Assembly (NCBI GenBank): GCA_030652215.1
Contig: JAUSBC010000035.1
Location: 1-64,000, forward strand
DNA length: 64,000 bases
Source of the DNA: Sideroxyarcus sp.
GTDB taxonomy: Bacteria; Pseudomonadota; Gammaproteobacteria; Burkholderiales; Gallionellaceae
Reading direction: 5' to 3'
Both the position numbers and the translations under genes were made by a program. Below the pieces are notes generated by a model. The model did not search any database. It saw only the letters and a program-made list of their open reading frames with translations, and was not told the DNA's origin. Below are positions 16,942-54,072 of this stretch, piece by piece. Positions within the stretch are counted from its first letter, which is position 1, and each line of letters opens with the position of its first letter.

Positions 16942-18213
16942 ATGCGAAATGAATTGCATGGAATTATCGCTTCGGCAGGCGTTGAAAGATCAGAAAAGAT
17001 TTTCAATTTTCTTAATTTTTCAATTCCTCTGCTCATGGGCATTTATGTATTTGCAAATCCCCTCCCCCTGTCGGCCCTTAGCAATGTTTGCTTTTATTTG
17101 TCTGTTTTGTCTCTGCTGATACTTATTGGCTTCAGGAAGACATCTTTCTCTTTGCGTTCACCGCTAACCTTGCCTTTTGCACTATTTTCTTTTTGGGCTG
17201 CTATCGGCCTACTCTTTACTCTTGATTTTGATAACACTCTGCACGATTTGCGCAGTCACTTGTTGAATTATCTAGTTGTATTCTATTTGTTGGTAAATTA
17301 TTTCAATTCGCAAATGCGACTCGAATTTTTATCTGTGCTTGTTATTTTCGGGGCAACCGTTTCTTCGCTGGGAACAGTTATAAGCTACTATTTCATCGAC
17401 GGCTTTCCCTTTTCGTCAAGACTGGGGATCGGCGCCAACTTCAGAGACATGCCCTGCATCTATATCGGTTTTATTACAATCCCCGCCATTGTTCTTGCTT
17501 TCAACAGGTTGCAATACAGCAAGACACTCACGAACACTCTGCTTTCTGCGTTTGCTATTGCTGTTCTAGTCAGTACCACGTTGCTTACTCAATCGAGGGG
17601 GGCCCTATTTGGGCTTTTAGCAGGACTGATAATTTTGTGCTTTAGCAACAGGAAATTCTTAATTGTCCTTATCTCAGCTTTGATTCTCTCCCTCTTCGTA
17701 CCGGGTCTAGTGGACAGATTTGATCCTGAAAAAATGATCCATGATGAAAGAAACAAGACCAACCATCTTGCCATGGAAGTGTTTAAGTTACATCCGACTA
17801 CCGGCGTGGGCTTCGGTATGCAGATTTATACCAATCCCAGTCTTGTCGATCTGGAGAAAATGAACAGTCAGTTTCCTCCCGAATATCGGCAGGAAAAAGT
17901 AATTGCGCAGCCTCACAACACGATAATGGATATCGTAGTTAGAACCGGAGTCGTTGGTCTTGTTCTGTATTCAAGCATACTGTTTGCTTCATTTTTACTG
18001 CTCTGGAAGACATACAGGACGACAAAGAATCAATATTACAGATCATGGGTATTTTGCCTTGCCGCCAGCTATGTATCGTATTTAGTGCCGGCATTGTTTA
18101 CAGATACAACATACGGCGCTCGGGCAATTATTTTTTATATTCTGTTGGCAATGATGACCATTTTGTGGAATCTTGTTCGAAAAGAAGATACTTTTGAAGT
18201 CAACCCGTCTTAA
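16942..18213 (+). CDS. O-antigen ligase (WaaL)-family membrane protein
   Basis: 423-residue polytopic protein with about 11-12 hydrophobic segments. The family motifs are visible: TLLTQSRGALFGLLAGLI in the middle and HPTTGVGFGM followed by QPHNTIMDIVVRTGVVGL in the large periplasmic loop. WaaL moves undecaprenyl-linked polymer to lipid A-core. Wzy polymerases share the fold, but a better Wzy candidate exists at 34621, and the neighbouring GT9 and msbA favour a ligase. It precedes the GT9 gene by 10 bases, likely in one transcript. Confidence 0.8.
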   Translation: MRNELHGIIASAGVERSEKIFNFLNFSIPLLMGIYVFANPLPLSALSNVCFYLSVLSLLILIGFRKTSFSLRSPLTLPFALFSFWAAIGLLFTLDFDNTLHDLRSHLLNYLVVFYLLVNYFNSQMRLEFLSVLVIFGATVSSLGTVISYYFIDGFPFSSRLGIGANFRDMPCIYIGFITIPAIVLAFNRLQYSKTLTNTLLSAFAIAVLVSTTLLTQSRGALFGLLAGLIILCFSNRKFLIVLISALILSLFVPGLVDRFDPEKMIHDERNKTNHLAMEVFKLHPTTGVGFGMQIYTNPSLVDLEKMNSQFPPEYRQEKVIAQPHNTIMDIVVRTGVVGLVLYSSILFASFLLLWKTYRTTKNQYYRSWVFCLAASYVSYLVPALFTDTTYGARAIIFYILLAMMTILWNLVRKEDTFEVNPS

Positions 18214-20202: not shown

Positions 20203-21012
20203 TTATCTGGGTTTATGAATCAGGCCTTTTTCACAAAACACCGGTATGTGTCGCCGCGAGTAGTATTCCATATTTGCACCTTCCTTCCAGTGCTGGCTGC
20301 CCATTTCACTCGGATGCCATAAATGCAATACTTTGGCTGTCTTGATGACTGATGTTCCACGAAATCCTCCTCGCACCATTCGAGTTGCAAAATCCACGTC
20401 TTCTCCGCCCCACCCGACAAACTTTTCGTCATAGCCGTTGACGGCCTCGATATCCTGTTTGAACGCGGAAAAATGGCCTCCAAACACCACCTTTTTCGCC
20501 GGTGCCAGTAAAAGTTTGTATAACAAAGAGTAGCGGATGAAGCGACGGTGCTCTTTTTCTATGGGTTCTTCAGAAAGTTCGGCATAAATCTTCTCCAGAA
20601 GCATCTCCGATGCCCCTTCTGCAAGGATTTTCTTACACTGTGCCTCGGTTGTATATTTGCATCTCCCTGCAGCAAAGTATCCCCGCTTGGCAGCCTCAAC
20701 GTGACTGCGAACCGCCCCCGGAAGAAGTGCAAAATCCGCATCAATAAAAACCAAATAGTTGCCGGTTGCATGGCGAATACCGTTGTTCCGGGTTGCCGAC
20801 CTGCGCGCCCCCTGCCGGGGATGCCACGCATGGATGATCGGAAAATCATATTTTTTGATTAACTCCTGCACGCTTTTCACAACGTCGGCACTGGATCCAT
20901 CATCCGCAATCACGACTTCGTGAAAATCGGACGAAGAACTCCGCAAGGAGTCGAGACACGCGGGAAGCAAGTCCAGGCGATTGTAGAAACAGATAATAAC
21001 GCTTGTTCTCAT
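20203..21012 (-). CDS. GT2-family glycosyltransferase with galactosyltransferase-type C terminus
   Basis: 269-residue GT-A enzyme: MRTSVIICFYNRLDLLPACL at the start, DDGS near residue 38, the metal-binding FIDADF near 94, and the C-terminal GWGGEDVDFATRM motif of the Glyco_transf_7C group, used by chondroitin and galactosyl transferases. AGGAGG precedes the ATG. The start overlaps the stop of the upstream GT10 gene as ATGA, so the two are translationally coupled. Confidence 0.88.
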   Translation of the reverse strand: MRTSVIICFYNRLDLLPACLDSLRSSSSDFHEVVIADDGSSADVVKSVQELIKKYDFPIIHAWHPRQGARRSATRNNGIRHATGNYLVFIDADFALLPGAVRSHVEAAKRGYFAAGRCKYTTEAQCKKILAEGASEMLLEKIYAELSEEPIEKEHRRFIRYSLLYKLLLAPAKKVVFGGHFSAFKQDIEAVNGYDEKFVGWGGEDVDFATRMVRGGFRGTSVIKTAKVLHLWHPSEMGSQHWKEGANMEYYSRRHIPVFCEKGLIHKPR

Positions 21013-22022
21013 TTGGTTTTCCTCCTGAGAAAATATCGCTTCACCTTGTAAACCAGCCGTCGCAGCCTGGTCATCGTACTGCGTTTGTACGCAGGTACTG
21101 TATGTTCAATTTGTATTTGGCTCATTGGTGGTTCTGACTTGAGCAATTTGGACAGTACTGGAAATATCTGGTACTCATAAAGGACGCGGCGCCTTGCCTC
21201 TTCAAGCGCGGGAAGTCGCCGACCCCAGTCATCTTCACGTAGCGTACGTTTGATAATCGCAATTGCCTCTTCCGGCTTTTCGATATCAATTCGAATGAAG
21301 GAATCCGCAGGGAAATATTTTTCCAGGTTTTGAGAGCCATGATAAAACGGGACCGTCCATGCAAGAAAGCAATCGGCGATTTTTTCGGTCCAGTAATCCG
21401 GCCATAAAGTGTTTTCAGCGGCTATCGAATAGCGGTATGGCGCCAAGCCGTCCCACTTGTCATCGATGAAACGAATCTCTCGTCCGTATAAATCGATATC
21501 CAGGTTTTCCTCTTCCTTTACTGCGCGCAAAAACGCTCCGCGTTTCAAATGCCCGGGCAGATCTTTGAAGTTGCCCACTATCCAGGAAAGCTGGCGGCTT
21601 TTTTCGGGCATGGCGCAGGTTGTCAATTCATCGAAAGTGCGGTTGACATGCCACGGCAGTGCCGGTTGTGAGGCTATGTATTTCGGGTCAGATGATGGGA
21701 GGTAGTTTGTATATACCCGGTCAAAGGAATCGTGCCCTTCCACCATCCAGTCCGTAAATCCCTTGGCATACGGTTCCTGCATCAGTGCCCAAATACGCCC
21801 TTTGGGGCATTTTGCATGGACAGCGCACTTCATGCGGTTATTTAACATGACAAGTGCGTCGCACTCTACTACATCGCTGGTAGTGAATTGTATGCCGTCC
21901 CAAATTCCCTTGCTGCCGGGAGTCTGGCGCAATAAATCCGGCCAATCCCAGTCTTTGGCGATACGCACGACGGGCATCGCTGAAGATTCGAAATTGTCTG
22001 TTTCCATGTTTGAATTTTTCAT
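21009..22022 (-). CDS. Second GT10-family (fucosyltransferase-like) glycosyltransferase
   Basis: About 337-residue enzyme. YRYSIAAENTLWPDYWTEKI followed by ADCFLAWTVPFYHGS is the GT10 donor signature, like the gene at 15819. The C terminus is basic (a run of R/K), perhaps membrane-associating. I chose ATG 22022; the longest frame would need a TTG at 22049. It overlaps the downstream GT2 by ATGA. Two divergent GT10 genes in one locus suggest two separate fucosyl-type additions. Confidence 0.82.
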   Translation of the reverse strand: MKNSNMETDNFESSAMPVVRIAKDWDWPDLLRQTPGSKGIWDGIQFTTSDVVECDALVMLNNRMKCAVHAKCPKGRIWALMQEPYAKGFTDWMVEGHDSFDRVYTNYLPSSDPKYIASQPALPWHVNRTFDELTTCAMPEKSRQLSWIVGNFKDLPGHLKRGAFLRAVKEEENLDIDLYGREIRFIDDKWDGLAPYRYSIAAENTLWPDYWTEKIADCFLAWTVPFYHGSQNLEKYFPADSFIRIDIEKPEEAIAIIKRTLREDDWGRRLPALEEARRRVLYEYQIFPVLSKLLKSEPPMSQIQIEHTVPAYKRSTMTRLRRLVYKVKRYFLRRKTK

Positions 22023-22058
22023 AAATCCACTTGAAGAGCTTTGTCTCAAAACAAGTGT

Positions 22059-34620: not shown

Positions 34621-35985
34621 TCAATATCCAACTTGGGTGATTGGTACTTTACCGGCATCACGTTCGGCGAGGCTCACACCCAAAATCCAGCAAAACAGAA
34701 ATCCAAACTTGCTGACAAAGCTGAGATGAAACATGCCAATTAAAAGATAACCCAGCGTCAACGCAACAAGGAACAGTCTCTTTTCGTCGGATAATGATCG
34801 CTCAACGCAGCACGAAACGACCAGATTGAGCACGAGCAGGAAAAAAATCGCCAAACCGAGCAATCCGTAGGCCAACACAAAAAACAGATATACATTATGT
34901 GGAGATAGATGCTTGCCCTCACACCATGTTTCATAGCCGGGCAATAGCTCGCCCGGGCTTCTTCCAAACAAGATGTTGGCCGGAGTGATGTACTCTAACA
35001 TCTCGCGCCAAATGGCCATTCGTGCACGACTCGAAGTATCGCTGTCGACCCTGAGCATGAGCATATTTGCCATTCTGAGATCAGCGTCACTTTCATTTCT
35101 GAGCTTAGTGTCACTTTCATTTATCTCGGTAGCTCGGCCGAATGGGCTTGCTACACTTTCAATTAGCTCGGCAGCTCGGCCGTTTGAGCTGATGATGAAC
35201 GCCAATGCAAACACCACTGCCAGACCGTAGCAGCCGGCAATCCTGATCCGGCCCTTGCCGCCCAAAATGAACACGATGGATATCAAACCAAGTACCGCAA
35301 CGGGAGTGCGTTCACGTAACACAATAATCAGTATCAACATGAACACAGTATTCAGCGCGAGAAGCCGACGCTGGCTGACGCGATCTCTATAAATCCATAA
35401 CAGGACAGGCACTACGACCGCAATCAACTGATAGTGAAAAAATGAATTCAACGTACCGAATAATCTCAAATCATTAGTTTGATAAACACTTAATCCCGCT
35501 GATATCATTTTTCTTACATAAGCGTCATCCCAGGGCAACAGCGTTGCGAGACTCTCCGAATTGAAGGCCCAAGCCTGCAATAGGCCATAGGCAACAAACG
35601 GGAGATAGAGACGGTTCAAAATATCGAAGCTTTGCTGTCGCGAGAGCAGAAGATAACCAAGAAGGATCCCGGCAATTGGTAGTGACAGATCTTTTGCCGC
35701 TGCAACGGCAACAAGGATGTGCTCACCCTTGACCAATGGAAAAATAGAAAAGTATGCTGCAACACCAATGACTGCCAACTGCCATTTCTGCAGCTTGGCG
35801 CTCAGGACATGAAGCAAGAACGCAAGCCCGGTAAGTGCATAGAAGGCTGCTGAGGCGCCAATGGGCATGATTCTGTCGATCAGATTGGAAAACAGAAAGA
35901 GAAGAATAATGGCAAACGAAAAGAACAAATCCGCCCTTTGGACTGAAGCCGCCAACAAAACCCTTGTGTTAACTAGTACCGACAT
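34621..35985 (-). CDS. Wzy-like O-antigen polymerase
   Basis: About 454-residue membrane protein with 11-12 hydrophobic segments. RERTPVAVLGLISIVFIL and, in the large loop, LFGRSPGELLPGYETW followed by LSPHNVYLFFVLAYGLLGL match the Wzy_C/O-antigen polymerase pattern. It lies beside wzx. ATG 35985 (MSVLVNTRV) is chosen; the open frame continues to 36153 but the extension looks non-coding. The periplasmic loop contains short internal repeats (35085-35182). Confidence 0.8.
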   Translation of the reverse strand: MSVLVNTRVLLAASVQRADLFFSFAIILLFLFSNLIDRIMPIGASAAFYALTGLAFLLHVLSAKLQKWQLAVIGVAAYFSIFPLVKGEHILVAVAAAKDLSLPIAGILLGYLLLSRQQSFDILNRLYLPFVAYGLLQAWAFNSESLATLLPWDDAYVRKMISAGLSVYQTNDLRLFGTLNSFFHYQLIAVVVPVLLWIYRDRVSQRRLLALNTVFMLILIIVLRERTPVAVLGLISIVFILGGKGRIRIAGCYGLAVVFALAFIISSNGRAAELIESVASPFGRATEINESDTKLRNESDADLRMANMLMLRVDSDTSSRARMAIWREMLEYITPANILFGRSPGELLPGYETWCEGKHLSPHNVYLFFVLAYGLLGLAIFFLLVLNLVVSCCVERSLSDEKRLFLVALTLGYLLIGMFHLSFVSKFGFLFCWILGVSLAERDAGKVPITQVGY

Positions 35986-36149
35986 TTTCTGGAATAATTC
36001 AGGTTGTATGGGGATGACAAACACCTTCGGTCTGACAACCGGCTTGAGCAAAGCCAACCGCTGGCGAAAGGTTGACTGAACCGATGCGCTGCAAACCCGC
36101 CCGCTGCGACAGCACAGCCTTGCGGGTTCCCGGGGTGAACCTAAGCCAC

Positions 36150-37871
36150 TCAAACATAACTATCTTCATAGATAAAAGGGGCATCATCCAGAATACCCTG
36201 ACAGATACAGTCCAGACCCTTATCGTTGCCAGGCTTTATACTAGCAAGCGGGCCGTGAAAACTGTACGGTGGCACGCCTGATCCGCCCTTGAATATATTG
36301 ATCGGAATCATTCTTCTAAAGAAGAAGTGATAGGCATATTTTTTAGCTCGAACTACAGTTTCAGCTGGCAAGCGCTGCGAGCGCGGCAACGTGGAAAGAA
36401 TATTTCCATATTTTTCCGGCGACGTAGCGTCAATGGTGACCCCCTTATTCCGAATCCAGGCTTCACCGGCAACAATCACGGGGATGCCGACACTGGTCAA
36501 TTCCACGCCAGTTTTCGTGCCGTAGATAATGACTGAGTCGCAAAGTTCAGAGAGTACATAAGTGCTAATGTTGCTCTCGGGCGGCACGATAAAGACATTC
36601 GATGGCAATTTGGGAAAGTGCTTTTCTAGCTCCTCAACCACTGGCTGCCTAGTTGGGACGGAACCACGGATTTCCGCAGGATGCACACGAATCACCAACT
36701 GCAGGTCGGGGCGCTTCTCAAAATACCGCACGGTGTGCAACAGCCATTCGAGCATATTAGGGAACGCATTGGCGGGATAGTGCAACTGTGCATCCCACAT
36801 CACATTGGTCAGGCAGCCGATGATTGGGCGGCTTGCATCGCAACCGATTTCGGCCAAGATTCGATCCTTCTCGAAATAGGGGTTTTCTGTAAAGCGTATC
36901 CAGTCGTTCTCGCCCTGCCAGCGGCTGCGCAAGTAGCGGCTTATGGTTTCTTCCCTCTCCGGCGACCAGTCCATGTTTTCCCAAGCCATCACCGGTTCGT
37001 CCATCAACGTATGGTGGTAAGTGTCGCCATGGCTGAAGATGAAGCAATTCTTGCGGTAGGCCGGATTCCAATTGACCACGCGAATACCCTGCTGCCGCGC
37101 AACCTCGCCGATGATGCCTTGGGGGACATAGATGCCGTGATGAAAAACGGCTACCTCGTATTTCTCTTTCTGCAGCAACTTCTTGACGGACAGCGCAGTC
37201 AGGATGGCAGCCTTCAAGTAACGCCGCAAAACCCGTTCGCCAAATGGCTCGTCGTCGATGGTTGCCCGCGCAAAGAACCGCAACGCACCCGCCTTGGCAT
37301 GCTCGCCAATCTTGATTCCATCAAGTTCAAAACCCTCAATTTCCGAAACGGGCAGTTTCGCCGACAGTTGTTCCGCATGCCGCTTGTCGTCATCCGTCAG
37401 ATTGTCGGAATAGGCATGGACAGGAATCCCGATATCTTCATAAACCCTGCGCCCTGGCACGTAGCAATGCCCGCATAAATCCTTGCTTGGCCCGTGGTCG
37501 GCAAAGCGTTTCGAATTGGGGAAAAAACGGGGTTCGCACATCTGGCAGCCGGGCAATACACCGTCACAAAGCAATGCATGAACATTGGCACCACGCAAAG
37601 TCAAAGCTGCAGCAAGCGTTGTCTCCATTTGCATGGCGGCAAGGTGGGATCCGATGCTGGTTGCGATAAGGACCTTTTTACCCTGTGTATTAGATGCATG
37701 CAATTCAGACCAGTGCTGCGATTCAACGCCTAAAAGACCTTTCCAATCTGGATAGCCGTCCCCAGAAGCCAGCTTTTTTCTCCGAGCCAGCTGAAGTCGG
37801 CTATCGAGACCCGGAAAATATCTAATGATTTTTACAACCTGCGATTTCAACTTATCAAGATGTTTAGACAT
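36150..37871 (-). CDS. Capsule-biosynthesis-type glycosyltransferase with cysteine pairs
   Basis: 573-residue cytoplasmic protein. The C-terminal half (LVIRVHPAEIRGS, then CDSVIIYGTKTGVELTSVGI and PVIVAGEAW) resembles the GT-B donor half of KpsC/KpsS-type and related capsule proteins. The N-terminal half carries CDGVLPGCQMCEP and LCGHCYVPG, two CxxC-like pairs that could bind metal. Lying 3 bases from wzx, it belongs to the O-unit operon. A partial decayed copy is found at 34225. Exact reaction unknown. Confidence 0.7.
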   Translation of the reverse strand: MSKHLDKLKSQVVKIIRYFPGLDSRLQLARRKKLASGDGYPDWKGLLGVESQHWSELHASNTQGKKVLIATSIGSHLAAMQMETTLAAALTLRGANVHALLCDGVLPGCQMCEPRFFPNSKRFADHGPSKDLCGHCYVPGRRVYEDIGIPVHAYSDNLTDDDKRHAEQLSAKLPVSEIEGFELDGIKIGEHAKAGALRFFARATIDDEPFGERVLRRYLKAAILTALSVKKLLQKEKYEVAVFHHGIYVPQGIIGEVARQQGIRVVNWNPAYRKNCFIFSHGDTYHHTLMDEPVMAWENMDWSPEREETISRYLRSRWQGENDWIRFTENPYFEKDRILAEIGCDASRPIIGCLTNVMWDAQLHYPANAFPNMLEWLLHTVRYFEKRPDLQLVIRVHPAEIRGSVPTRQPVVEELEKHFPKLPSNVFIVPPESNISTYVLSELCDSVIIYGTKTGVELTSVGIPVIVAGEAWIRNKGVTIDATSPEKYGNILSTLPRSQRLPAETVVRAKKYAYHFFFRRMIPINIFKGGSGVPPYSFHGPLASIKPGNDKGLDCICQGILDDAPFIYEDSYV

Positions 37872-42140: not shown

Positions 42141-44081
42141 TTATCTCAGAGTGCCAAGGACCGTAGCGATTAAGCCGCTCCGATCAAATGCATGCTCACC
42201 AAGTATTTCTGGATTGGTCCCACATGCCGGAATTTCCGTCAGCGCAAGCCGATGCAGTGTCGTGCTTGTGAGCCCTTTTGATGCCATGGCATCCGCAATT
42301 CGATCTCCTTGCCCGCCAATCAAATAATGATTGTCGATGGAGAAAACTGCCTTGCAGTTACCCAACGCTGTCACCAGCCAATCTGCATCGACATGGTTCA
42401 GCCAGGGCAGGTTGATAACTTTCACGGTGATGCCGTGCTCGCTCCTCAGCTCCTGCGCTGCCTGTACTGCCGATGTCAACATAACCGGGCCATAGGCGAT
42501 GATGATCGCATCCTGCCCTTCAGTCAGTGCGTTGCCTTTGCCAAACTCGGGTTTGTAGCCAGCGGGCAATTCATACGGCAGCACCCAGGGCAAGCTGACG
42601 AGGCGCAAATAACTGCTGGCCTTGTTCGTATTGATCGCCCAGTTGAGGAGCATCCCCACTTCCGCTTCGCAGCAGGGCTCCATCATTGTAAGTCCGGGGA
42701 TTGCCGCCAGTGCGGATATGTCCCGTACCGCCTGGTGGGAATGCCCCGGCCCCCCTGGGACGACACCGGCAAGAGAGCCGACGTAGATGATTTTTTCGTG
42801 CTCGGTGGCGTTGTTGTAAATTTGTTCGTTCGGCCTCGCCGAGAGGAAACAGGCGAAGGAGTGCACGATGGGGAGCAGTCCCTGCAGTGCCATGCCGCCA
42901 GCCTGAGACACCATATCCTGCTCGGCGATGCCGCATTCCACAAAGCGATCGGGGAACTCCTTTTGGAATGGGATCAACCCGGTGTCGAGAATCAGGTCGG
43001 CGTCCAGTGCAACAATCTTGGGGTTCTGTCGCGCTTGTTCGATCAGTGCGTTTGAGTAGGCCTGAATCAGCCGCTGCGGGTTCTCGGGCTGCACTGCGGC
43101 GGGGCGAACGACTGTCTCCAGTTCGAGTGCAACAGCTCCTGCAGACTTCAGGCGAGCATTCGCGGCGTCGATGAGTTCCTGCGCCGCTTTGACGTAGGCC
43201 GCATCGGTTGGTGCGCCGCTGTGGAATTTGTAGAACTCGATATCGGAATCGATGGACGTGTGCTCCATGAAGGAGACACCTTTGCCTTTGATGGTGTCGG
43301 CGATGATAACTTTTGGCTTGCCGGAAATTGTTTTGGTCGCCGCCAGCGTTTGCGAGAAGGCTGCCATGTCATTGCCATCGCAGCGGCTGACATGCCAACC
43401 GAAGGCACGCAGCTTGGCTTCGAGGTCGCCCAGGTCGCTGACCTTGGTGACCAGCGTGTCCGACTGAAGTTTGTTATGGTCGATAATGACGGTCAGTTCA
43501 TGCAATTTGTGGTTGGCAGCGGAAACCAGAGATTCCCAGAACTGGCCTTCCTGCAATTCACCATCTCCGGTGAGCACATAGACATTTCCTGAATGTTTGA
43601 GCAATCGATTGGCGAAGATCATGCCCTTTGCCTTGGATACTCCCATACCTAGCGATCCGGTATTGGTGACAATATTGGGTGTGGATATATCGGGGTGTCC
43701 GGGCAACCCGCCGATGCGGCGCAGTTGGTGGATCAACTCGAAATCCAGCTTGCCCTGGCCGATGAAGGTGTTGTAGAGGCCTGGCGCATCGTGCCCCTTG
43801 GAGGAGAAAAAGATATCGCACGGCGATGTTGTGTCGCCTTCCGGCGGGGTGCGCAGTTCATTGAGTTGCAACCAGGACATGATGTCCATGCTGCTGAAGC
43901 TGCTGCCGATGTGCCCGGAACCCGCACGGGCAATCATGTAGAGGGTGTTGATGCGGCAGAGGGCGGCAAATAACGCCGTTCTCTCCACTGCGGAAACCGG
44001 CAAGGCGCGGATGCGCTCGAATTCTTTAAGAGGTACGTAATACAGGGTACCGCTGACTGCTACTCCAATTTGATCGCCCAC
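42141..44081 (-). CDS. Full-length transketolase in a nonulosonate-type operon
   Basis: 646-residue thiamine-diphosphate enzyme with both transketolase halves fused. The ThDP motif begins LTGDGELQEGQFWESLVSAA; the middle domain has VECGIAEQDMVSQAGGMALQ with the catalytic Glu; GHIGSSFSSMDIMSW is at the N terminus. GTG 44081 follows AAAGGAG. Unlike housekeeping tkt, it lies 12 bases from a CMP-sugar synthetase gene in a sugar operon, so I infer it moves a two-carbon unit in making the special sugar. Confidence 0.9.
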   Translation of the reverse strand: MGDQIGVAVSGTLYYVPLKEFERIRALPVSAVERTALFAALCRINTLYMIARAGSGHIGSSFSSMDIMSWLQLNELRTPPEGDTTSPCDIFFSSKGHDAPGLYNTFIGQGKLDFELIHQLRRIGGLPGHPDISTPNIVTNTGSLGMGVSKAKGMIFANRLLKHSGNVYVLTGDGELQEGQFWESLVSAANHKLHELTVIIDHNKLQSDTLVTKVSDLGDLEAKLRAFGWHVSRCDGNDMAAFSQTLAATKTISGKPKVIIADTIKGKGVSFMEHTSIDSDIEFYKFHSGAPTDAAYVKAAQELIDAANARLKSAGAVALELETVVRPAAVQPENPQRLIQAYSNALIEQARQNPKIVALDADLILDTGLIPFQKEFPDRFVECGIAEQDMVSQAGGMALQGLLPIVHSFACFLSARPNEQIYNNATEHEKIIYVGSLAGVVPGGPGHSHQAVRDISALAAIPGLTMMEPCCEAEVGMLLNWAINTNKASSYLRLVSLPWVLPYELPAGYKPEFGKGNALTEGQDAIIIAYGPVMLTSAVQAAQELRSEHGITVKVINLPWLNHVDADWLVTALGNCKAVFSIDNHYLIGGQGDRIADAMASKGLTSTTLHRLALTEIPACGTNPEILGEHAFDRSGLIATVLGTLR

Positions 44082-44093
44082 CGGGGTGCTCCT

Positions 44094-44849
44094 TTAGTCG
44101 TGAATTTGGAAGGGTGTTTGACTGACGACCGGCAGACGCGCCTCGCCTTTGGCAAGGTAATGCTCTGCAAGCAGCCAGTCTTCAGGTTCGTTGATGTCGA
44201 AGCCTTCAAGCCCTTGGCTGATGAAGGGGATGATGGCTTCGCCGGCTATCGTGTTTTGTTCCCTTGCGATGCGAGACCAGGCGATTTCCAGGCTGGCGTC
44301 CTGCGCGTAGATTTCCGGCAGAGCGGCGTATTGGCTGCTGTGCCACGGTGTTGTACCGTTCGTGAACGGCATCACGGGCAACATGCGCTTGCCGCGCACA
44401 ACCCACATTTTTCCTGGGTGTTGTTTGCACTTTTCGATGGCGCGCAGAGAATCGGCATTGGGATCGCTGGTGAAAACATTCCAGGCACGTCGGATCGTTT
44501 CCGGCAAGCGGAACGGACTGGTCGGGCGCAGGATACTGAAGATTTCATAGTCACGTCCCTGCGCCTTCAGGGTGTTCAGCATCCAGACCACCCATTCTAT
44601 GTCAGGCGATTTGTCCCCGGAGATTTCAGCAGACCGCAAAAAAGGCACTTCAGCGCCGTAATGGCGTGCGACATCGGCGTAAAGTTCGCTATCAGTCGCA
44701 CAGATCACAGAATCAAACACCCCGCTGTCGATGGCGGCGCGCACGGTATAGGCAAGCATGGGGTGCTCTGCCAAGGGCTTGACGTTCTTGTTGGGTACCC
44801 GCTTTGATCCTGAGCGGGCCGGAATGAAGGCGACAGTTTTTGGTTTCAT
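44094..44849 (-). CDS. CMP-sugar synthetase (NeuA-like acylneuraminate cytidylyltransferase)
   Basis: 251-residue cytidylyltransferase that activates a nonulosonate-type 2-keto acid with CTP. The signature AFIPARSGSKRVPNKNVKPL is at the N terminus; ILRPTSPFRLPETI and the C-terminal GFDINEPEDWLLAE match the NeuA/PseF/LegF group. It lies 4 bases downstream of the aldehyde dehydrogenase stop. The substrate is presumably the product of the NeuB-like gene. Confidence 0.9.
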   Translation of the reverse strand: MKPKTVAFIPARSGSKRVPNKNVKPLAEHPMLAYTVRAAIDSGVFDSVICATDSELYADVARHYGAEVPFLRSAEISGDKSPDIEWVVWMLNTLKAQGRDYEIFSILRPTSPFRLPETIRRAWNVFTSDPNADSLRAIEKCKQHPGKMWVVRGKRMLPVMPFTNGTTPWHSSQYAALPEIYAQDASLEIAWSRIAREQNTIAGEAIIPFISQGLEGFDINEPEDWLLAEHYLAKGEARLPVVSQTPFQIHD

Positions 44850-44853
44850 GATG

Positions 44854-46317
44854 TCAGATCAGATTGCTGCGGGTAAGGAAGGAAATATTCTTCAATTCGG
44901 AATAGACATCAAGCGCCTCTGCACCGGGTTCGCGCGTGCCATTGCCGGAAGCACCGAAACCGCCGAAGGGCATGTGCGGCTCGCTGCCGAAAGTACCCAG
45001 ATTGATGTTGGCGACGCCAGCACGTACCCGCTGGGCGAACCACATGGCACGATCCACACTGCGTGTATGTATTGCTGCGGTAAGCCCATACTCGGTAGCG
45101 TTGGCCAACTTGAGTGCGGTGGCCATGTCTTCAACCGGGTGCAGTGTGGCCACCGGGCCGAAGATTTCTTTGCAACTCAGTTCTGCCGACGGCTGTAGCC
45201 CTTCGATCACAGTAGGCTGAATGTAGTATCCATTTGCCAATTCCCGCTCAGTCGGTGCGGCCCCCCCGCATAGTATCCGCCCTCCTTCTGCCCTGGCGGT
45301 CGCAATAGCGGCGAGAATACTATTCTGTTGGCGTTTGTTGATGACGGGACCAAGGTCGCAGCCTGCACTCACACCCAATTTCAAGCTCCTTGCCTTAGCA
45401 ACGAGCTTGTCTCTAAATTCGTCAAAGACGCTATTGAATACCAGAATACGACTGCCTGCGGCGCAGCGCTGGCCGGCATTACTGAAGGCGGAGAGCGCGG
45501 CCCAATGTACCGCCTGATCGAGATCGGCATCGTCACATACGACAAACGGATTTTTGCCGCCCAGTTCAAGGGATATTCGAGCCAAGCGTTTACCAGCCAC
45601 TTCGGCAATCCAACGTCCAACTCCTGTTGAACCAGTGAAACTGATGACCGCTACGCGTGTATCTTCCACCAGTGCAGCGCCCGCAACTTGCCCTCGTCCC
45701 TGCACAACGTTGAAGACACCATCCGGCAAACCGGCTTCTTTGGTGATTTTGGCAAACAGGTTCGCGATGCCCGGGGAATCTTCTGCGGCCTTCATGACCA
45801 CAGTGTTTCCGCAAATTAGGGCGGGGAAGGTTTTCCAGGCGATGTTGGCAATGGGGGTGTTCGCCGGGACGATAAGACCGGCGATGCCGCGCGGCTGCCT
45901 GACAGTGTGACTGTATTTGCCAGGAGTGCCGGATGTCAGCGAGCGGCCATACAGGCGCATGCCTTCGCCAGCAAAGTATTCCGCCTGAAGAATGGCGCCA
46001 CCGACTTCGCCCTTGGCGTCCTGTGGCGGCTTGCCGGTTTCAATGGCAATGCAGTCTGCCAATTCTTCTGCTCGCTGCTTCATGGCCGCAACAATTTCGG
46101 TCAGGATTTGGCCTCGTTTGACCGGCGTTATTTCTGACCACGCGGGGAATGCATTACCTGCTGCAGCAATGACTCGCTGTGTGTCTGCGACAGATGAGTC
46201 GGCGACATGGTAAAGCAACTCACCCGTATGGGGATTGAATTTTTCCAGCCAAGCATCGCTTTCTGGCAGTGCTTCCTGGCCGTTGATCCAATTCGGAATG
46301 GGAGAAATGTTGGTCAT
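44854..46317 (-). CDS. NAD(P)-dependent aldehyde dehydrogenase
   Basis: About 487-residue ALDH. Visible are the nucleotide loop SFTGSTGVGRWIA, the catalytic Glu in LELGGKNPFV, and the catalytic Cys in FSNAGQRCAAGSR; the C terminus MPFGGFGASGNGTREPG is typical. It oxidises an aldehyde to an acid or reverses this in the sugar pathway. ATG 46317 is preferred; a TTG at 46323 would overlap the SDR stop. Confidence 0.92.
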   Translation of the reverse strand: MTNISPIPNWINGQEALPESDAWLEKFNPHTGELLYHVADSSVADTQRVIAAAGNAFPAWSEITPVKRGQILTEIVAAMKQRAEELADCIAIETGKPPQDAKGEVGGAILQAEYFAGEGMRLYGRSLTSGTPGKYSHTVRQPRGIAGLIVPANTPIANIAWKTFPALICGNTVVMKAAEDSPGIANLFAKITKEAGLPDGVFNVVQGRGQVAGAALVEDTRVAVISFTGSTGVGRWIAEVAGKRLARISLELGGKNPFVVCDDADLDQAVHWAALSAFSNAGQRCAAGSRILVFNSVFDEFRDKLVAKARSLKLGVSAGCDLGPVINKRQQNSILAAIATARAEGGRILCGGAAPTERELANGYYIQPTVIEGLQPSAELSCKEIFGPVATLHPVEDMATALKLANATEYGLTAAIHTRSVDRAMWFAQRVRAGVANINLGTFGSEPHMPFGGFGASGNGTREPGAEALDVYSELKNISFLTRSNLI

Positions 46318-46319
46318 GG

Positions 46320-47132
46320 TCAAATCGCCGTCCAGCCGCCGTCTATGACGAGATTCGCGCCCGTCATGTAGCGTGAGGCTTCGCTCGCGAGGAAGAGAAC
46401 CGAACCGTTGTACTCATCGACGTTAGCCATGCGCCCGACGGGGATGCGACCGCAATAGGCATCGAGAAAGGCTTGTTCCTGGTTGTTGAAGACGCCGGCG
46501 ATGGTCAGGGAGTTGACCCGCACGCCCTGTTTTGCCCAATACACAGCCAAGTATCGCGTCAGGTTAAGTATGCCGGATTTGGACGCCGAATAGGCCACTG
46601 GCTTGAAAAAGACCTCACCTCGCTTGCGACGGTATTCATAGAGGTTCTGGTCGGGCGATACAACACCATAGATCGAGGCAACATTGATGATTGCTCCCTT
46701 CCCCGCCGTGGCCATAGCTGAGCCAAACACCTGGCAGCAAAGATAGACGCCTTTGAGATTGACGTCGATGACCTTATCCCATGAGGCTTCCGGGTAATCC
46801 TCAAAGGGACCGTTTTCTTCCGGCGGGGCAGAGGGTGGGGAATCAATGGCGGCATTGTTGATCAGCACAGTGGGCGTGCCAAACTTGTCGGCGACTATTT
46901 TTAAAACAGCCTTCAATGCCGACTTGTCGGTGACGCTGGATGCACAAAACAGGAAGTTAGCGGGATATTGCGCCGCCAGCGCTTCGCTGCCCGGTGAATG
47001 GCGAACGTCCAAACCTGCCACGCGTGCACCTCTGGAAAGAAAGGCCTTTGCATATTCACCGCCCAATTGGCCCGATACGCCGGTGATCAAGACAATTTCC
47101 CGGCTAATATCAAAGAGTGTATCTGTCGTCAT
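46320..47132 (-). CDS. Short-chain dehydrogenase/reductase
   Basis: 270-residue classical SDR. The Rossmann motif is ITGVSGQLGGEYAKAF (a GxxGxxG variant), NNAAI is present, and the active site is Ser in INVASIYG and YSASK. An insert around residues 150-175 (NLYEYRRKRGE) resembles sugar-modifying SDRs in NulO clusters. It overlaps the phosphatase gene by ATGA. It probably oxidises or reduces a hydroxyl of the sugar intermediate. Confidence 0.9.
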   Translation of the reverse strand: MTTDTLFDISREIVLITGVSGQLGGEYAKAFLSRGARVAGLDVRHSPGSEALAAQYPANFLFCASSVTDKSALKAVLKIVADKFGTPTVLINNAAIDSPPSAPPEENGPFEDYPEASWDKVIDVNLKGVYLCCQVFGSAMATAGKGAIINVASIYGVVSPDQNLYEYRRKRGEVFFKPVAYSASKSGILNLTRYLAVYWAKQGVRVNSLTIAGVFNNQEQAFLDAYCGRIPVGRMANVDEYNGSVLFLASEASRYMTGANLVIDGGWTAI

Positions 47133-47647
47133 ATTGCTGCCACCGTCTGGTTATTGTTCTTTGCATAAAAAATCAGGTCGCACACTTCACGCACAGCTCC
47201 AAACCCGCCAGGCTTTTCTGTGCAGTACAGTACATGTGGATATACCTCGGGGTAGGCATCCGCAACAGCAACAGGCACGCCAATGGATTGGAAAGCGGGG
47301 ATGTCGTTGATATCGTTGCCGACGAACATGGTTTGATCCGTTGCGACCCCCAACTCTCGACAGGTCTCCAGTATCACCGCCGCCTTGTCCTCGACACCCT
47401 GCTTGCAAAGCATTTTCAGTTTTCTCGCCCTGGCAGTGACTACAGGATTAGCTTCTGTAGAGATGATGAAAGCTTGCACCCCAACGCTTCTCAGCCTTGC
47501 AAGCCCGAGTCCGTCACTACGCCAGCATCGAACAGACTCGATGCCATCTTGTGTGACATAGACGGTGTTGTCGGTAAAGACCCCGTCAAAATCAAAGACC
47601 ACCAATCCAATTGTGGCCAACAATTCCTGGCTTATCGTTGTTTGCAT
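47129..47647 (-). CDS. KdsC-like HAD phosphatase
   Basis: 172-residue HAD phosphatase of the KDO-8-phosphate phosphatase type. Motif I is VVFDFDGVFTDN, then Ser/Thr in FIISTEANPVV, K in KQGVEDKAAV, and FVGNDINDIPAF with the last two acids. In this operon it should dephosphorylate the condensed nine-carbon-type acid (for example a 9-phosphate), or act as a fused-pathway phosphatase; the exact substrate is inference. It follows NeuB by 12 bases. Confidence 0.9.
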   Translation of the reverse strand: MQTTISQELLATIGLVVFDFDGVFTDNTVYVTQDGIESVRCWRSDGLGLARLRSVGVQAFIISTEANPVVTARARKLKMLCKQGVEDKAAVILETCRELGVATDQTMFVGNDINDIPAFQSIGVPVAVADAYPEVYPHVLYCTEKPGGFGAVREVCDLIFYAKNNNQTVAAI

Positions 47648-47659
47648 TCTGGCTGTTTC

Positions 47660-48691
47660 TCAATCTTCAAGGTCTGCAAACAGAATTGCATCACCTTGGG
47701 CGATATTTCGCTTCGCAGTTCGACCGATCACTTGGTTGGATTCTCGCACAGGGATGTACTGAGTATTGAAGATTCTACCGGACAGATTCTCCAACGAGAT
47801 CTTTTCTCCGGCCCGGATATCCACATATGCAATCAATGACTTGCCTAGCTTCTTGAATACGCGCTCATTGCCAAGGTCATCCGTCGGCTTGGGTTGCATC
47901 ATGTGACGAACTCGTTTGATATCGCGCACGAACTTGCGAAAACCTTCAGGCTCAAGGGCGAAACTATGGTCGGTTCCCTTCCAGGCCCGGTTCAGCGTGA
48001 CGTGTTTTTCAAATACACGAGCACCTTTCAAATAAGCTACTGGACCGGACAAGGTTCCGTTGAAATGGTCCGAGGAACCGATTGTGCAGTTTGGAAACTC
48101 CTTGATCAGAACTTCGATATTGTCCAAACCAAGGCGATTATATTCGCATGGGTATTCGGACACACAATGCAGAATCGCCACTTCGTCATGTTGATTGAGC
48201 AACACCTCGACGCTTGATCGTATCTGCTCGATTTTTCCACCTCCAACGCTCATCACCACAGGCTTCCCCATACTGGCGATCCGGTGGATCAGCGGCAAGT
48301 TACCCAAATCAAATGAGGCGACTTTCAGAATATCAACATCGATTTGTTTTAGCAGATCAAGGCTGGGTTCATCAAAAGGTGTCGACATGAATTTGACGCC
48401 ATGCTTAATGCAATCCGCTTTCAGGATGGGCAGCCATTCGGGCTTGAGTTCAAGATGCTCCCGATGCGCACCGTAAGTCTCTGCGAATGCATTCTCGCTG
48501 GCATATGGCGCCTCATACGCATCTTTAGAAAACAAATATTTGTTATTGCGCGTCTGAAATTTGACGGCATTGGCTCCTTCGAAAGCAAAAATGCGAATGT
48601 ATTCGCGCGCTACATCCAAGTCACCTTGGTGATTCTGGCCAACTTCGGCGATAACGAAAGGCTCTTCGCCGATATCTTCACGTCTGAACAT
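47660..48691 (-). CDS. NeuB-family nonulosonate synthase with SAF domain
   Basis: 343-residue PEP-condensing synthase. The start FVIAEVGQNHQGDLDVAREY is diagnostic; FMSTPFDEPSLDLL and VILH-type ILHCVSEYPCEYNRLGL follow, and residues 285-343 form an antifreeze-like SAF domain. The family joins PEP to an aldose to give a 2-keto-3-deoxy acid. GGAGAA lies before the ATG. The usual hydrolysing 2-epimerase partner is absent. Confidence 0.92.
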   Translation of the reverse strand: MFRREDIGEEPFVIAEVGQNHQGDLDVAREYIRIFAFEGANAVKFQTRNNKYLFSKDAYEAPYASENAFAETYGAHREHLELKPEWLPILKADCIKHGVKFMSTPFDEPSLDLLKQIDVDILKVASFDLGNLPLIHRIASMGKPVVMSVGGGKIEQIRSSVEVLLNQHDEVAILHCVSEYPCEYNRLGLDNIEVLIKEFPNCTIGSSDHFNGTLSGPVAYLKGARVFEKHVTLNRAWKGTDHSFALEPEGFRKFVRDIKRVRHMMQPKPTDDLGNERVFKKLGKSLIAYVDIRAGEKISLENLSGRIFNTQYIPVRESNQVIGRTAKRNIAQGDAILFADLED

Positions 48692-52212: not shown

Positions 52213-53616
52213 CTATCTGCCGTAATTGTCTTCATAGCGTTGTATATCGTCTTCACCCAAATATTCGCCGACCTGAATTTCCACGATATGCAACGGCTCG
52301 GTGCCCAGATTCTCCAGCCGGTGTTTCGTGCCGATAGGAATATAGGTACTCTGGTTCTTGTTCACAGTAATGACTTCCTCACCATTGGTGACCGTAGCTG
52401 TGCCAGCCACCACCACCCAGTGTTCAGACCGATGTTTATGGCTTTGCAGGCTAAGTCTCGCACCCGGTGCAACCTCAATGCGTTTGAGCTTGAACCCCTC
52501 CGGATCTTCTTCCAATACGGTGTAACTTCCCCAGGGGCGGTTTATTTTGGTATGAAAGATATGTTCAGTGGCGCCACTTTGCTGTAAGGCGTCCACCACC
52601 TTGCGCACATCCTGCGTCTGGTCACTCCTCGAAATCAACACGGCATCTGCGGTTTCAATCACGCAAAGATCTTCCACACCGATGACTGCGACCAAGCGTT
52701 TCTCTGAGCGGATCAGGCTGTTTTTGCAGTTTACCGCAATGACATTTCCCTGCAGCGCATTGCCGCTTTCATTCTTCGGGGAAATCTCATGCACTGCCTG
52801 CCAACTACCTACATCGTTCCAGCCGATGTCGCACGGAATGAGCGATACGCTATCCGATTTTTCCAGCACACCGTAGTCGATGGAAATGGAGGGCATCGCT
52901 GCAAAATGCTTTTCCACGGCTTGCTGGAAGGTTGTGCCCGCGCGGCTATCGGCTGCGATGGTTTGCGCGATCTTGTATACCTCGGGCAAGTACTTCTGGA
53001 TTTCGGCAAGAATCACCGAGGCACGCCATACGAACATGCCGGAGTTCCAATAATAATTGCCTTCCTTCAGGAAGCGCTCGGCGGTGGCATGATCGGGTTT
53101 TTCGGTAAAACGATCCACCTTGTAGACTCGCGCATCATTGGTTTGATGCGCCTTGATGTAACCGAAGCCGGTATCGGGTCGGCTTGGCTGAATACCAAAT
53201 GTAACCAATTTTCCGCTTTGCGCCGTTTCAATCGCGATATCCAGAAGTGCGCGGAAACGCTCTTCATTCTTGATAATGTGATCCGCAGGCAAAACCACCA
53301 TCACCGGATCTTTCCCTTCGGCCATCAGGTATGCAGCAGCCAATGCAATTGCCGGTGCAGTATTGCGTCCGATTGGTTCGAACAGTGACTTATACGGCAA
53401 CAGCGCGTGGTAGGCCTCGCCCTTGGCATGCGATTCCTGCGTTACGATCAATACGTTCTTTGCTTCTATTGTTGGCGACAGACGATCAATGGTGGTTTGC
53501 AGCAACGAACCCTCGCCGTCCAGCACCAAAAATTGCTTCGGAAGATGTTGCCGCGACAAAGGCCAAAGTCTGCTTCCGCTTCCGCCAGCCAGAATGACTG
53601 CGTGTACATCACTCAT
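52213..53616 (-). CDS. manC: Bifunctional mannose-1-phosphate guanylyltransferase/mannose-6-phosphate isomerase
   Basis: About 467-residue type II enzyme making GDP-mannose. The N-terminal pyrophosphorylase signature [20 protein letters not shown] and FVEKP-equivalent [14 protein letters not shown] are present; the C-terminal cupin has [12 protein letters not shown] and [30 protein letters not shown] precedes ATG 53616. It feeds gmd, the second gmd-like gene, fcl and mannosyltransferases. It slightly overlaps the MarR-type regulator gene upstream. Confidence 0.96.
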
Positions 53617-53956
53617 TTTTATTCTCCAATAAACCATTTTGCTCGGCTTCGCGCTGCAACTCTTCTATTTCCGCGCGTAGCCGCTCGTATTCCTGTACTT
53701 TGTATTTCAAAAATACAACGGTCATGCGCGCCCGCGATTCGATACCCTGCGGGGTCAGCAGATAGGCGTACGCCAGCTTGTTGTCGCTGTTGCGGAAGTT
53801 GTTGATTTTGAGACTGCCCTTTGCGACCAGAGCATTGAGGCAATAGTTGACTTTACCCAGGCTGACACCGAGCCGCTTCGCCAAATCCCTTTGGGAAAGT
53901 CCGGGGTTTTCTTCCAAAGTCTTGAGCAGGCCGTAGTGTGTTGCTTCGTCGAGCAT
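53609..53956 (-). CDS. MarR-family EPS-associated transcriptional regulator
   Basis: About 115-residue winged-helix protein. [40 protein letters not shown] and [20 protein letters not shown] are hallmarks of the EPS-associated MarR-like group, which sits near exopolysaccharide loci; a C-terminal coiled coil ([20 protein letters not shown]) follows. ATG 53956 fits family length better than 53989. As the first gene of the minus-strand run and overlapping manC by 8 bases, it likely controls this locus. Confidence 0.9.
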
Positions 53957-54072
53957 TTTGGGTGTGTTCAAGTAGTGAACGGGGCGCATTAGAGCAGTCG
54001 CAGGCGAAGGGTGTCAAGCAGGAAAATGCTCTCGTGTATCATGGCGACCTTGTTTTCGCCCTGAGTCATCGC

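What the first reader, a model, noticed from the sequence alone, without database searches (positions are those of the whole stretch)
42141..48691. Transketolase inside a NeuB-type sugar-acid operon
Six genes in one tight minus-strand run encode a NeuB-like synthase, KdsC-like phosphatase, SDR, aldehyde dehydrogenase, CMP-sugar synthetase and a full-length transketolase (overlaps or gaps of 2 to 12 bases). Known sialic, legionaminic and pseudaminic pathways do not use a transketolase or ALDH and usually need a NeuC-type epimerase or aminotransferase, none of which is here. I infer a novel CMP-linked 2-keto-3-deoxy acid whose aldose precursor is built or trimmed by two carbons and oxidised.
Basis: partly seen in the sequence, partly recalled or inferred. 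Interest (0 to 1): 0.85.

Follow-up and report, generated by a model that had tools for sequence, protein, structure and literature searches.

The report
Carbon-trimming pathway for surface sugar acid
A conserved set of bacterial genes appears to build a sialic-acid-like sugar, cut two carbons off its tail with a repurposed transketolase, oxidise the stump to a second acid group, and attach the product to the cell-surface polysaccharide.

Summary
Six minus-strand genes (NeuB, KdsC-like HAD, SDR, ALDH, CMP-sugar synthetase, transketolase) form one run in an LPS/O-antigen locus. The genome has a separate canonical transketolase and no PF02350 (NeuC-type) gene. The set is a conserved cassette: of the 80 best of 416 transketolase relatives, 60 had enough upstream DNA, and 37 of these keep NeuB-(HAD)-SDR-ALDH-CMP-TKT in order, in records titled from about seven phyla. 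Cassette ALDH and TKT occur in the same 5 of 369 sampled genomes; a KpsC-like glycosyltransferase (36150-37871) was found only in TKT-positive genomes. The transketolase keeps thiamine and donor-head residues but has lost the phosphate-binding ones, including the positions (E. coli R358, H461, R520) that were mutated to improve TktA on unphosphorylated 5-keto-gluconate. Best reading: NeuB/HAD make a nonulosonic acid (Kdn-like), SDR oxidises C8, TKT removes C8-C9, ALDH oxidises C7, giving a CMP-activated 3-deoxy-hept-2-ulosaric (Dha-type) acid. The reactions are inferred; no chemistry was tested. Starting aldose, C2 acceptor and stereochemistry are open. The rows shown by ten searches of open-licence papers held no description of it.

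The parts
47660..48691 (-). NeuB-family synthase: condenses PEP with an aldose (inferred aldose-6-phosphate) to a 2-keto-3-deoxy acid
   Evidence: PF03102 1.1e-66 and SAF; below NeuB and PseI equivalog cut-offs
47129..47647 (-). KdsC/Kdn-9-P-phosphatase-like HAD phosphatase: removes the terminal phosphate (inferred)
   Evidence: KdsC 113 bits, KDN-9-phosphatase 89 bits, both below cut-off; a second KdsC-like gene at C76, 36% identity; another HAD family in its stead in 9 of 59 relatives' loci
46320..47132 (-). SDR oxidoreductase: inferred oxidation of the penultimate hydroxyl (C8), making a terminal ketose
   Evidence: PF13561 1.1e-43; gluconate 5-dehydrogenase and KduD among its NCBIfam hits, all below cut-off; EpaB, of the same Pfam family, works with EpaA to 8-epimerise pseudaminic acid
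44854..46323 (-). Aldehyde dehydrogenase: inferred oxidation of the C7 aldehyde to a carboxylate
   Evidence: PF00171 1.5e-153; found in the same 5 of 369 genomes as the cassette TKT
44094..44849 (-). CMP-sugar synthetase (PF02348 superfamily of PseF/KdsB)
   Evidence: PF02348 1e-21; PseF 133.3 of 205.7 bits, below cut-off
42141..44081 (-). Transketolase without the phosphate site: inferred removal of C8-C9 as a glycolaldehyde unit
   Evidence: Three TK domains; thiamine and donor-head residues kept, phosphate-site residues replaced; model pLDDT 90.9
36150..37871 (-). KpsC-like GT-B glycosyltransferase, inferred to transfer the cassette's CMP-sugar
   Evidence: PF05159 23.7 bits over cut-off 20; model pLDDT 91.5, KpsC beta-Kdo transferases best by TM among 50 listed rows; in both genome samples only in TKT-positive genomes
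52213..53637 (-). Mannose-1-P guanylyltransferase/mannose-6-P isomerase: possible source of mannose-6-P for NeuB
   Evidence: TIGR01479 579.7 bits over cut-off 372.95

Best explanation
The six genes make a CMP-activated, chain-shortened, dicarboxylic ulosonic acid for the surface polysaccharide. Steps: (1) NeuB condenses PEP with an aldose-6-phosphate, most simply mannose-6-phosphate, giving a Kdn-9-phosphate-like acid. (2) The KdsC-like HAD removes the phosphate. (3) The SDR oxidises the C8 hydroxyl, turning the tail into a hydroxymethyl ketone (terminal ketose). (4) The repurposed transketolase takes C8-C9 off as a glycolaldehyde unit, leaving an aldehyde at C7. (5) The ALDH oxidises C7 to a carboxylate, giving a 3-deoxy-hept-2-ulosaric (Dha-type) acid. 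(6) The CMP synthetase activates it, before or after the tail is cut. (7) The KpsC-like glycosyltransferase at 36150-37871 adds it to the polysaccharide. Shown by sequence: gene identities at superfamily level, conservation and order, co-occurrence, loss of the transketolase phosphate site. Inferred: every reaction, the starting aldose, the order of steps 3-6 and the acceptor of the C2 unit.
For: Conserved order: 37 of 60 loci with at least 6.5 kb upstream keep NeuB-(HAD)-SDR-ALDH-CMP-TKT. ALDH and TKT share the same 5 of 369 genomes. The transketolase keeps its histidines, thiamine Asn and Glu in 87 of 87 rows; in E. coli numbering S385 is D in 87, H461 is L in 87, D469 is P in 85 and T in 2, R520 is S in 85, R358 is I/V/F/L/Q/P. 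Four metabolic split transketolases keep R358 and R520 in 4 of 4. TktA R358I/H461S/R520Q has 55.3% more activity than wild type on 5-keto-gluconate, giving tartaric semialdehyde, and a semialdehyde dehydrogenase is the proposed next enzyme to tartrate: the same dehydrogenase/TK/ALDH logic. EpaB, an SDR of the same Pfam family, takes part in changing C8 of pseudaminic acid. A phosphatase of one of two HAD families is present in 40 of 59 loci, never both. By bookkeeping from recalled configurations, 8-keto-Kdn read from C9 has the C3/C4 configuration of xylulose and fructose. A mannose-6-P isomerase lies in the same locus.
Against: No reaction is tested. Some loci have TKT without a close ALDH: L048 and L070 keep NeuB-SDR-CMP-TKT, and their genomes G749 and G752 have no ALDH at E<=1e-90, nor have G751 and G753 (4 of 10 genomes searched). 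The acceptor for the C2 unit is unknown, and loss of the phosphate site argues against the usual sugar phosphates. From mannose the product would be the L-arabino isomer, not the natural D-lyxo Dha. The single-chain transketolase model superposes on DXS (TM of query 0.71-0.76) better than on transketolase (0.41-0.46). In 19 of 59 loci neither phosphatase is nearby. L053, L055 and L063 lack a close CMP synthetase next to TKT. H461 and D469 are also changed in 3 of 4 metabolic split transketolases, so those two changes are not special to the cassette.
Confidence: 0.55

Rival explanations
1. C2 addition instead of removal: the SDR makes a ketone or aldehyde on the ulosonic acid and the transketolase adds a two-carbon hydroxyacetyl unit to it, giving a lengthened or branched CMP-ulosonic acid; the ALDH acts on another carbon.
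For: Transketolase is reversible; a Thermotoga transketolase adds C2 from hydroxypyruvate to galacturonic acid giving 7-keto-octuronic acid. S385, D469 and R520 were also mutated to accept new aldehydes. Loci without a close ALDH exist.
Against: It leaves the ALDH, near TKT in 51 of 60 loci, without an obvious substrate; no gene for a special C2 donor was recognised among the neighbours that I scanned.
Confidence: 0.17
2. The transketolase and the oxidoreductases build or trim an unusual aldose before NeuB.
For: NeuB comes in two types beside the same other genes, so NeuB substrates may vary.
Against: The transketolase lost residues that bind sugar phosphates, while a phosphatase is part of the set, which suggests that phosphate is carried through the NeuB step. 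An ALDH before NeuB would tend to consume the aldehyde that NeuB needs.
Confidence: 0.12
3. The transketolase is an extra copy of the ordinary pentose-phosphate enzyme that feeds precursors.
For: It carries the full three-domain architecture.
Against: A canonical tkt is elsewhere in the genome; phosphate-site residues replaced in the 87 rows examined; below every transketolase equivalog cut-off listed.
Confidence: 0.03
4. A DXS-like or other thiamine enzyme that decarboxylates an alpha-keto acid and adds an acyl group to the sugar.
For: The single-chain model has DXS-like domain packing; the C-terminal half scores 159 bits with the dxs model, below its cut-off.
Against: The histidine that binds the donor C1-hydroxyl in transketolases (human H110; role recalled) is kept in 87 of 87 rows where the genome's own DXS has Phe. 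The best whole-length sequence relatives in the PDB are human transketolase chains (about 325 bits against 170 for the best DXS).
Confidence: 0.08

Closest known systems
Kdn pathway (Kdn-9-P synthase, Kdn-9-P phosphatase, CMP-Kdn synthetase; pathway recalled)
   Same: NeuB-family synthase, KdsC-like HAD phosphatase and CMP synthetase, with no NeuC or aminotransferase among the six genes
   Different: Three more enzymes (SDR, ALDH, transketolase); HAD below the KDN-9-phosphatase cut-off (89 of 180 bits)
5-keto-gluconate to tartrate route (gluconate oxidation, transketolase, semialdehyde dehydrogenase)
   Same: Same enzyme logic: oxidise the penultimate OH, remove C2 with transketolase, oxidise the aldehyde; TktA R358I/H461S/R520Q, improved on 5-keto-gluconate, is changed at positions also changed in the cassette enzyme
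   Different: Acts on a C6 sugar acid and is partly engineered; the last step is described there as lacking validation; here a conserved cassette linked to NeuB and CMP activation
8-epimerisation of nonulosonic acids (EpaA/EpaB; AciE)
   Same: A PF13561 SDR (EpaB) paired with an enzyme that has a CTP_transf_3 domain (EpaA), changing C8
   Different: EpaA also has an aldo-keto reductase domain and no carbon is lost; here a transketolase and an ALDH are the partners
KpsC / WbbB retaining beta-Kdo transferases
   Same: PF05159 match, GT-B-type fold, best TM with KpsC among the 50 rows listed; invariant D360 and H397-P398
   Different: 12-16% identity to the KpsC chains, aligned over about half of the 573-aa model; the first residue of the QXXXD motif appears to be N (own reading, by eye)
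[quoted passage not shown]
   Same: C7 3-deoxy-ulosaric acid, the product class predicted here; its synthesis in plants is listed as unidentified
   Different: Predicted isomer from mannose would be L-arabino, not D-lyxo; no link between Dha and these genes is shown

Membership tests
Canonical transketolase (EC 2.2.1.1) | Three transketolase domains | tested here: met
   PF00456, PF02779 and PF02780 all above cut-off
Canonical transketolase (EC 2.2.1.1) | Thiamine-binding and donor-head residues | tested here: met
   GDG Asp, Asn, Glu and the His at human 37, 77, 110, 258 in 87 of 87 rows
Canonical transketolase (EC 2.2.1.1) | Sugar-phosphate-binding residues (E. coli R358, S385, H461, R520) | tested here: not met
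   Replaced in the rows examined
Canonical transketolase (EC 2.2.1.1) | Curated equivalog score | tested here: not met
   Best 383.4 of 488 bits
Neu5Ac / legionaminic pathway | Hydrolysing 2-epimerase NeuC/LegG (PF02350) | tested here: not met
   None in own genome; the search rings in 11 of 14 control genomes; genome 89.85% complete
Neu5Ac / pseudaminic synthase | NeuB or PseI equivalog score | tested here: not met
   247.2 of 399.65 and 208.8 of 340.25 bits
Legionaminic / pseudaminic pathway | Aminotransferase in the set | tested here: not met
   None among the six genes; rest of own genome not searched
Kdn pathway | Kdn-9-P phosphatase equivalog | tested here: not met
   89 of 180 bits; family-level resemblance only
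Kdn pathway | Kdn-9-P synthase activity on mannose-6-P | not testable with these tools
   Needs an enzyme assay; a mannose-6-P isomerase is in the locus
KpsC-like beta-Kdo transferase | Capsule_synth domain and KpsC fold | tested here: met
   PF05159 23.7 over 20; TMt 0.50-0.56 to KpsC chains against 0.27-0.36 for the other listed chains, but better E-values to WecB-type epimerases
KpsC-like beta-Kdo transferase | QXXXD nucleophile motif, catalytic His and Glu | tested here: inconclusive
   Invariant D360, near-invariant N356, invariant H397-P398; matched to the motif described by eye only
Dha (heptulosaric acid) biosynthesis | Product is a C7 3-deoxy-ulosaric acid | not testable with these tools
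   Needs MS/NMR

The most novel reading that the evidence does not exclude
This is a natural route to CMP-3-deoxy-hept-2-ulosaric acid (Dha-type sugars), in which a transketolase that has abandoned sugar phosphates acts as a carbon-chain trimmer on a sialic-acid-like molecule. It would be a widespread but unrecognised class of seven-carbon dicarboxylic sialic-acid analogues on bacterial surfaces.
Probability: 0.45. Interest if true: 0.85.

Novelty: new variant of a known kind. Interest (0 to 1): 0.73.

Why it matters
Dha was reported in plant RG-II in 1988, and a 2025 review still lists its biosynthesis as unidentified. A bacterial cassette with a testable seven-step route would make that question approachable, though the predicted isomer differs. 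It would add carbon-chain shortening to nonulosonic acid chemistry and would be a natural counterpart of the laboratory TktA variant made for tartaric semialdehyde. Ordered cassettes occur in records titled from about seven phyla and transketolase relatives from a dozen or so, so the sugar may be common but unnoticed. The linked KpsC-like transferase gives a marker for finding it.

Tried and rejected
Ordinary sialic/legionaminic/pseudaminic cluster: rejected. Ordinary transketolase copy: rejected. CMP synthetase-TKT fusion: looked for in 87 locus records, none found; apparent fused ORFs were over-long start choices.

Neighbour genes Pfam-scanned in case they replace cassette steps (20 proteins): methyltransferases (FkbM and others), a radical SAM protein, a GT2 glycosyltransferase, ABC exporter parts, a hexapeptide transferase, a DegT aminotransferase (one member scanned, L063; its ORF family is in 17 of the 89 maps, at no fixed place that I could see), and in L053 and relatives an NTP transferase, an NDP-hexose dehydratase and a C-methyltransferase. 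I recognised none as a substitute for SDR or ALDH; the HAD_2 gene behind TKT (two members scanned) looks like a substitute for the phosphatase. Three proteins of two families (316-317 aa and 537 aa) had no Pfam match.

Paper searches, all ten used. Of these, some were aimed at the gene set, the others at Dha, tartrate or transketolase engineering. The rows shown held no paper that describes the cassette, but several lists were cut (20 of 854, 15 of 64, 25 of 122). 'transketolase' with 'NeuB' as whole words gave three papers that are unrelated by title. Only open-licence PMC papers were searched. Papers were seen as listings, abstracts' beginnings or passages, none read whole: passages of PMC12016104, PMC5073344, PMC7661550, PMC5713287 (69, a reference entry only), PMC12168206, PMC11766843 (85, transketolase only as an EC number in a figure legend), PMC10148158, PMC12053666, PMC8317047.

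Weak points of my own work: the MAFFT alignment of the genome's canonical transketolase is gapped around R358 and R520 (it shows I and F there), so for those two positions I rely on (human TKT; split TKTs). The split-TKT control is four of 46 plasmid records, three of them rhizobial with the same operon. The 87 rows include at least four loci that appear to be second copies of the same contig (L015/L037, L016/L053, L020/L065, L021/L085; judged from contig lengths). The 80 loci are the best of 416; 336 were not seen. The E-value cut-offs of the genome searches were my choice.


Full report
WHAT IS THERE. Pfam and NCBIfam give NeuB+SAF, KdsC-type HAD, SDR (PF13561), ALDH, CTP_transf_3 and a three-domain transketolase. 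None of the six reaches a curated NCBIfam cut-off in the rows shown (for ALDH 25 of 44 and for SDR 25 of 198 families are shown), so each belongs to a known superfamily but no named function fits. The surroundings are an LPS/O-antigen locus: GMD, a GMD-like gene, a GDP-fucose-synthase-like gene just under its cut-off (482.3 of 500 bits), ManC, heptosyltransferase I and WaaA on one side, and Wzy- and Wzx-like genes on the other. GC is 0.42-0.57 between 10 and 54 kb against 0.61-0.64 in the first 10 kb.

The genome (G000, 3.64 Mb, 128 contigs, 89.85% complete) has a separate 679-aa transketolase on C73, DXS on C121 and weaker thiamine-enzyme matches on C114 and C43. It has one NeuB match at E<=1e-15, a second KdsC-like phosphatase on C76, and no PF02350 epimerase, a family found in 11 of 14 control genomes. 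So neither refutation came true as far as tested. I built no tree of NeuB with characterised synthases.

IT IS A CONSERVED CASSETTE. The transketolase is rare: 5 of 369 genomes of the class at E<=1e-100 and 5 of 398 of the phylum at E<=1e-90, own genome included in both. The nine genomes so found all carry a NeuB and the SDR (9 of 9 each). A scan of GTDB genomes with a nine-sequence profile found 416 relatives, of which the best 80 were returned; their titles name Pseudomonadota, Acidobacteria, Cyanobacteria, Chloroflexi, Bacteroidetes, Planctomycetota, Myxococcota, Spirochaetales, Gemmatimonadetes, Nitrospirae, Verrucomicrobia, Elusimicrobia and Parcubacteria. MAG titles may be wrong (one is called Bifidobacterium breve). 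Of the 80, 60 had at least 6.5 kb upstream of the transketolase. In these, within 7.5 kb upstream on the same strand, NeuB was present in 43, HAD in 27, SDR in 47, ALDH in 51 and CMP synthetase in 55; 22 keep all six in the window's order and 15 more all but the HAD. The titles of these 37 name about seven phyla: Pseudomonadota, Acidobacteria, Chloroflexi, Bacteroidetes, Spirochaetales, Myxococcota and Pseudobdellovibrio. Of twelve loci that looked incomplete ten could be searched genome-wide: ALDH at E<=1e-90 in 6 of 10, a NeuB at E<=1e-20 in 10 of 10, though in two only a distant one at 31-32% identity. An independent control: cassette-type ALDH (E<=1e-120) occurs in the same 5 of 369 genomes as the transketolase, with chance of about 1e-9 for the four other than G000 if genomes were independent, which they are not fully.

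THE PHOSPHATASE STEP. Among 59 of the 80 loci (those of at least 15 kb), 31 have the KdsC-like HAD, 9 have a gene of another HAD family close behind the transketolase (two members of it scanned, HAD_2), none has both and 19 have neither. The lack of overlap has probability 5.5e-4 under independence, again ignoring kinship. I read it as one phosphatase step filled by two different HAD families, so NeuB probably makes a phosphorylated product.

THE TRANSKETOLASE HAS LOST ITS PHOSPHATE SITE. Against human transketolase and in 87 aligned cassette-family rows (at least four apparently duplicates) the thiamine-binding and donor-head residues are kept in 87 of 87: Asp of GDG, Asn203, Glu387, and His57, 97, 129, 287 (human 37, 77, 110, 258). 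The phosphate-site positions, in E. coli numbering, are changed: R358 to I/V/F/L/Q/P, S385 to D in 87, H461 to L in 87, R520 to S in 85 (P and T once each). D469 is P in 85 and T in 2, and an Arg at 453 (E in the genome's canonical enzyme) is fixed in 87. Four metabolic split transketolases keep R358 in 4 of 4, R520 in 4 of 4 and S385 in 3 of 4, but H461 in only 1 of 4 and D469 in only 1 of 4. So loss of the two arginines and the S to D change mark the cassette; H461 and D469 vary elsewhere too. That R358, H461 and R520 bind the substrate phosphate is recalled; S385's role is stated in PMC5073344, and its abstract describes how S385Y/D469T/R520Q was evolved from phosphorylated towards unphosphorylated and aromatic aldehydes. 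PMC12016104 reports TktA R358I/H461S/R520Q with 55.3% more activity on 5-keto-gluconate than wild type, giving tartaric semialdehyde, with glycolaldehyde or formaldehyde as acceptor, and names a semialdehyde dehydrogenase as the proposed, not validated, next step to tartrate. Wild-type TktA thus has some of this activity too. That D469 reads the alpha-hydroxyl of the aldehyde is recalled; if so, its loss would fit a substrate whose C6 oxygen is tied up in the pyranose ring.

WHY C2 TRIMMING. Each enzyme then makes the substrate of the next: SDR makes a hydroxymethyl ketone, TKT makes an aldehyde, ALDH makes an acid. [quoted passage not shown] that EpaB itself oxidises C8 is my inference. NCBIfam matches of the cassette SDR, all below cut-off, include gluconate 5-dehydrogenase and KduD, which act on a hydroxyl near the tail of sugar acids (recalled); PDB relatives include a sorbitol dehydrogenase and a gluconate 5-dehydrogenase, at general SDR level. 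If NeuB uses mannose-6-P, which the ManC/PMI in the locus can supply, 8-keto-Kdn viewed from C9 has the C3/C4 configuration of xylulose and fructose, and the product is the L-arabino C7 diacid, not D-lyxo Dha (bookkeeping of recalled configurations). NeuB exists in two types (19 locus records at 60% identity or more to the window's, 40 below 50%, of 87) beside the same tail genes, so the starting aldose may differ between lineages.

THE TRANSFERASE. The gene at 36150-37871 was not in the finding. It has relatives of 40-63% identity within the fetched locus in 36 of 80 loci; in 16 of these it starts within 500 bases behind the transketolase and in 9 more within 1100. In the class sample it occurs in 2 of 369 genomes at E<=1e-50, both with the transketolase, while three transketolase genomes lack it; in the phylum sample in 5 of 398, the same five that have the transketolase. 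Handle numbers suggest 747 distinct genomes in the two samples; leaving out G000, 5 with the transferase all fall among 8 with the transketolase (hypergeometric 3e-11; two of the genomes are of one genus). Its model (pLDDT 91.5) is GT-B-like. By Foldseek E-value WecB-type epimerases lead the list, but by TM-score KpsC beta-Kdo transferases are best among the 50 rows shown (TMt 0.50-0.56 against 0.27-0.36), over about half of the model and with rmsd 6-9. PF05159 is just above its cut-off. No significant PDB sequence match. That it transfers the cassette's sugar is inferred.

RESULTS AGAINST. L048 and L070 keep NeuB-SDR-CMP-TKT but their genomes show no ALDH at E<=1e-90, so their product may stay an aldehyde or use another enzyme. 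One transketolase relative (L066, Minicystis rosea) sits outside any recognisable cassette in 22 kb, and L084 shows none on a short contig. The single-chain model of the transketolase (pLDDT 90.9) packs its domains like DXS (TMq 0.71-0.76) rather than like transketolase (0.41-0.46), although the best E-values are to human transketolase. It may be a monomer artefact, but it leaves a DXS-like mode open. The C2 acceptor is unknown. I know of no polysaccharide structure from a carrier; I did not search for one strain by strain.

NOVELTY. The rows shown by ten searches held no paper on this gene set; only open-licence papers were searched and several lists were cut. Dha-type acids are known products (RG-II; Rhizobiaceae LPS core, seen as a reference title), and a 2025 review marks Dha synthesis as unidentified. 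I rate it a new variant of a known kind: NeuB-type ulosonic acid synthesis with a new tail-trimming module.

Noticed in passing
window 47660-48691 and 59 of 87 locus records: NeuB falls into two types (19 records at 60% identity or more to the window's, 40 below 50%) beside the same tail-processing genes, as if different starting sugars are fed into one trimming module.
   Followed up: partly
L041:11942-12661, L079:8911-9612 and others: A gene of another HAD family close behind the transketolase stands in for the KdsC-like HAD in Acidobacteria and Cyanobacteria loci and was never seen with it in 59 loci.
   Followed up: yes
window 42141-44081: The AlphaFold single-chain model packs its domains like DXS rather than transketolase; real or a monomer artefact, unknown.
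   Followed up: no
L016, L053, L055, L063: The transketolase is followed directly by genes of the NTP transferase, NDP-hexose dehydratase and C-methyltransferase kind, suggesting a C-methylated sugar next to the trimmed acid.
   Followed up: no
L063:9780-10889 and others: A DegT-type aminotransferase family occurs in 17 of the 89 locus maps (one member Pfam-scanned); whether it serves the cassette sugar or another one is unknown.
   Followed up: no
L085:6044-7657; L089:4490-5440; L092:4792-5745: Two families beside cassettes (537 aa and 316-317 aa) have no Pfam match.
   Followed up: no
window 15819-16862, 16942-18213, 21009-22049, 34621-36153: Two GT10 fucosyltransferase-like genes and two Wzy/ligase-like genes in one window, perhaps two polysaccharide loci side by side.
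   Followed up: no
window 53609-53989: EPS-associated MarR-family regulator (TIGR04176, 156.1 bits over cut-off 88) at the head of the minus-strand run.
   Followed up: no
L066 (Minicystis rosea): A transketolase of this family without the phosphate site but with no cassette gene in 22 kb.
   Followed up: partly
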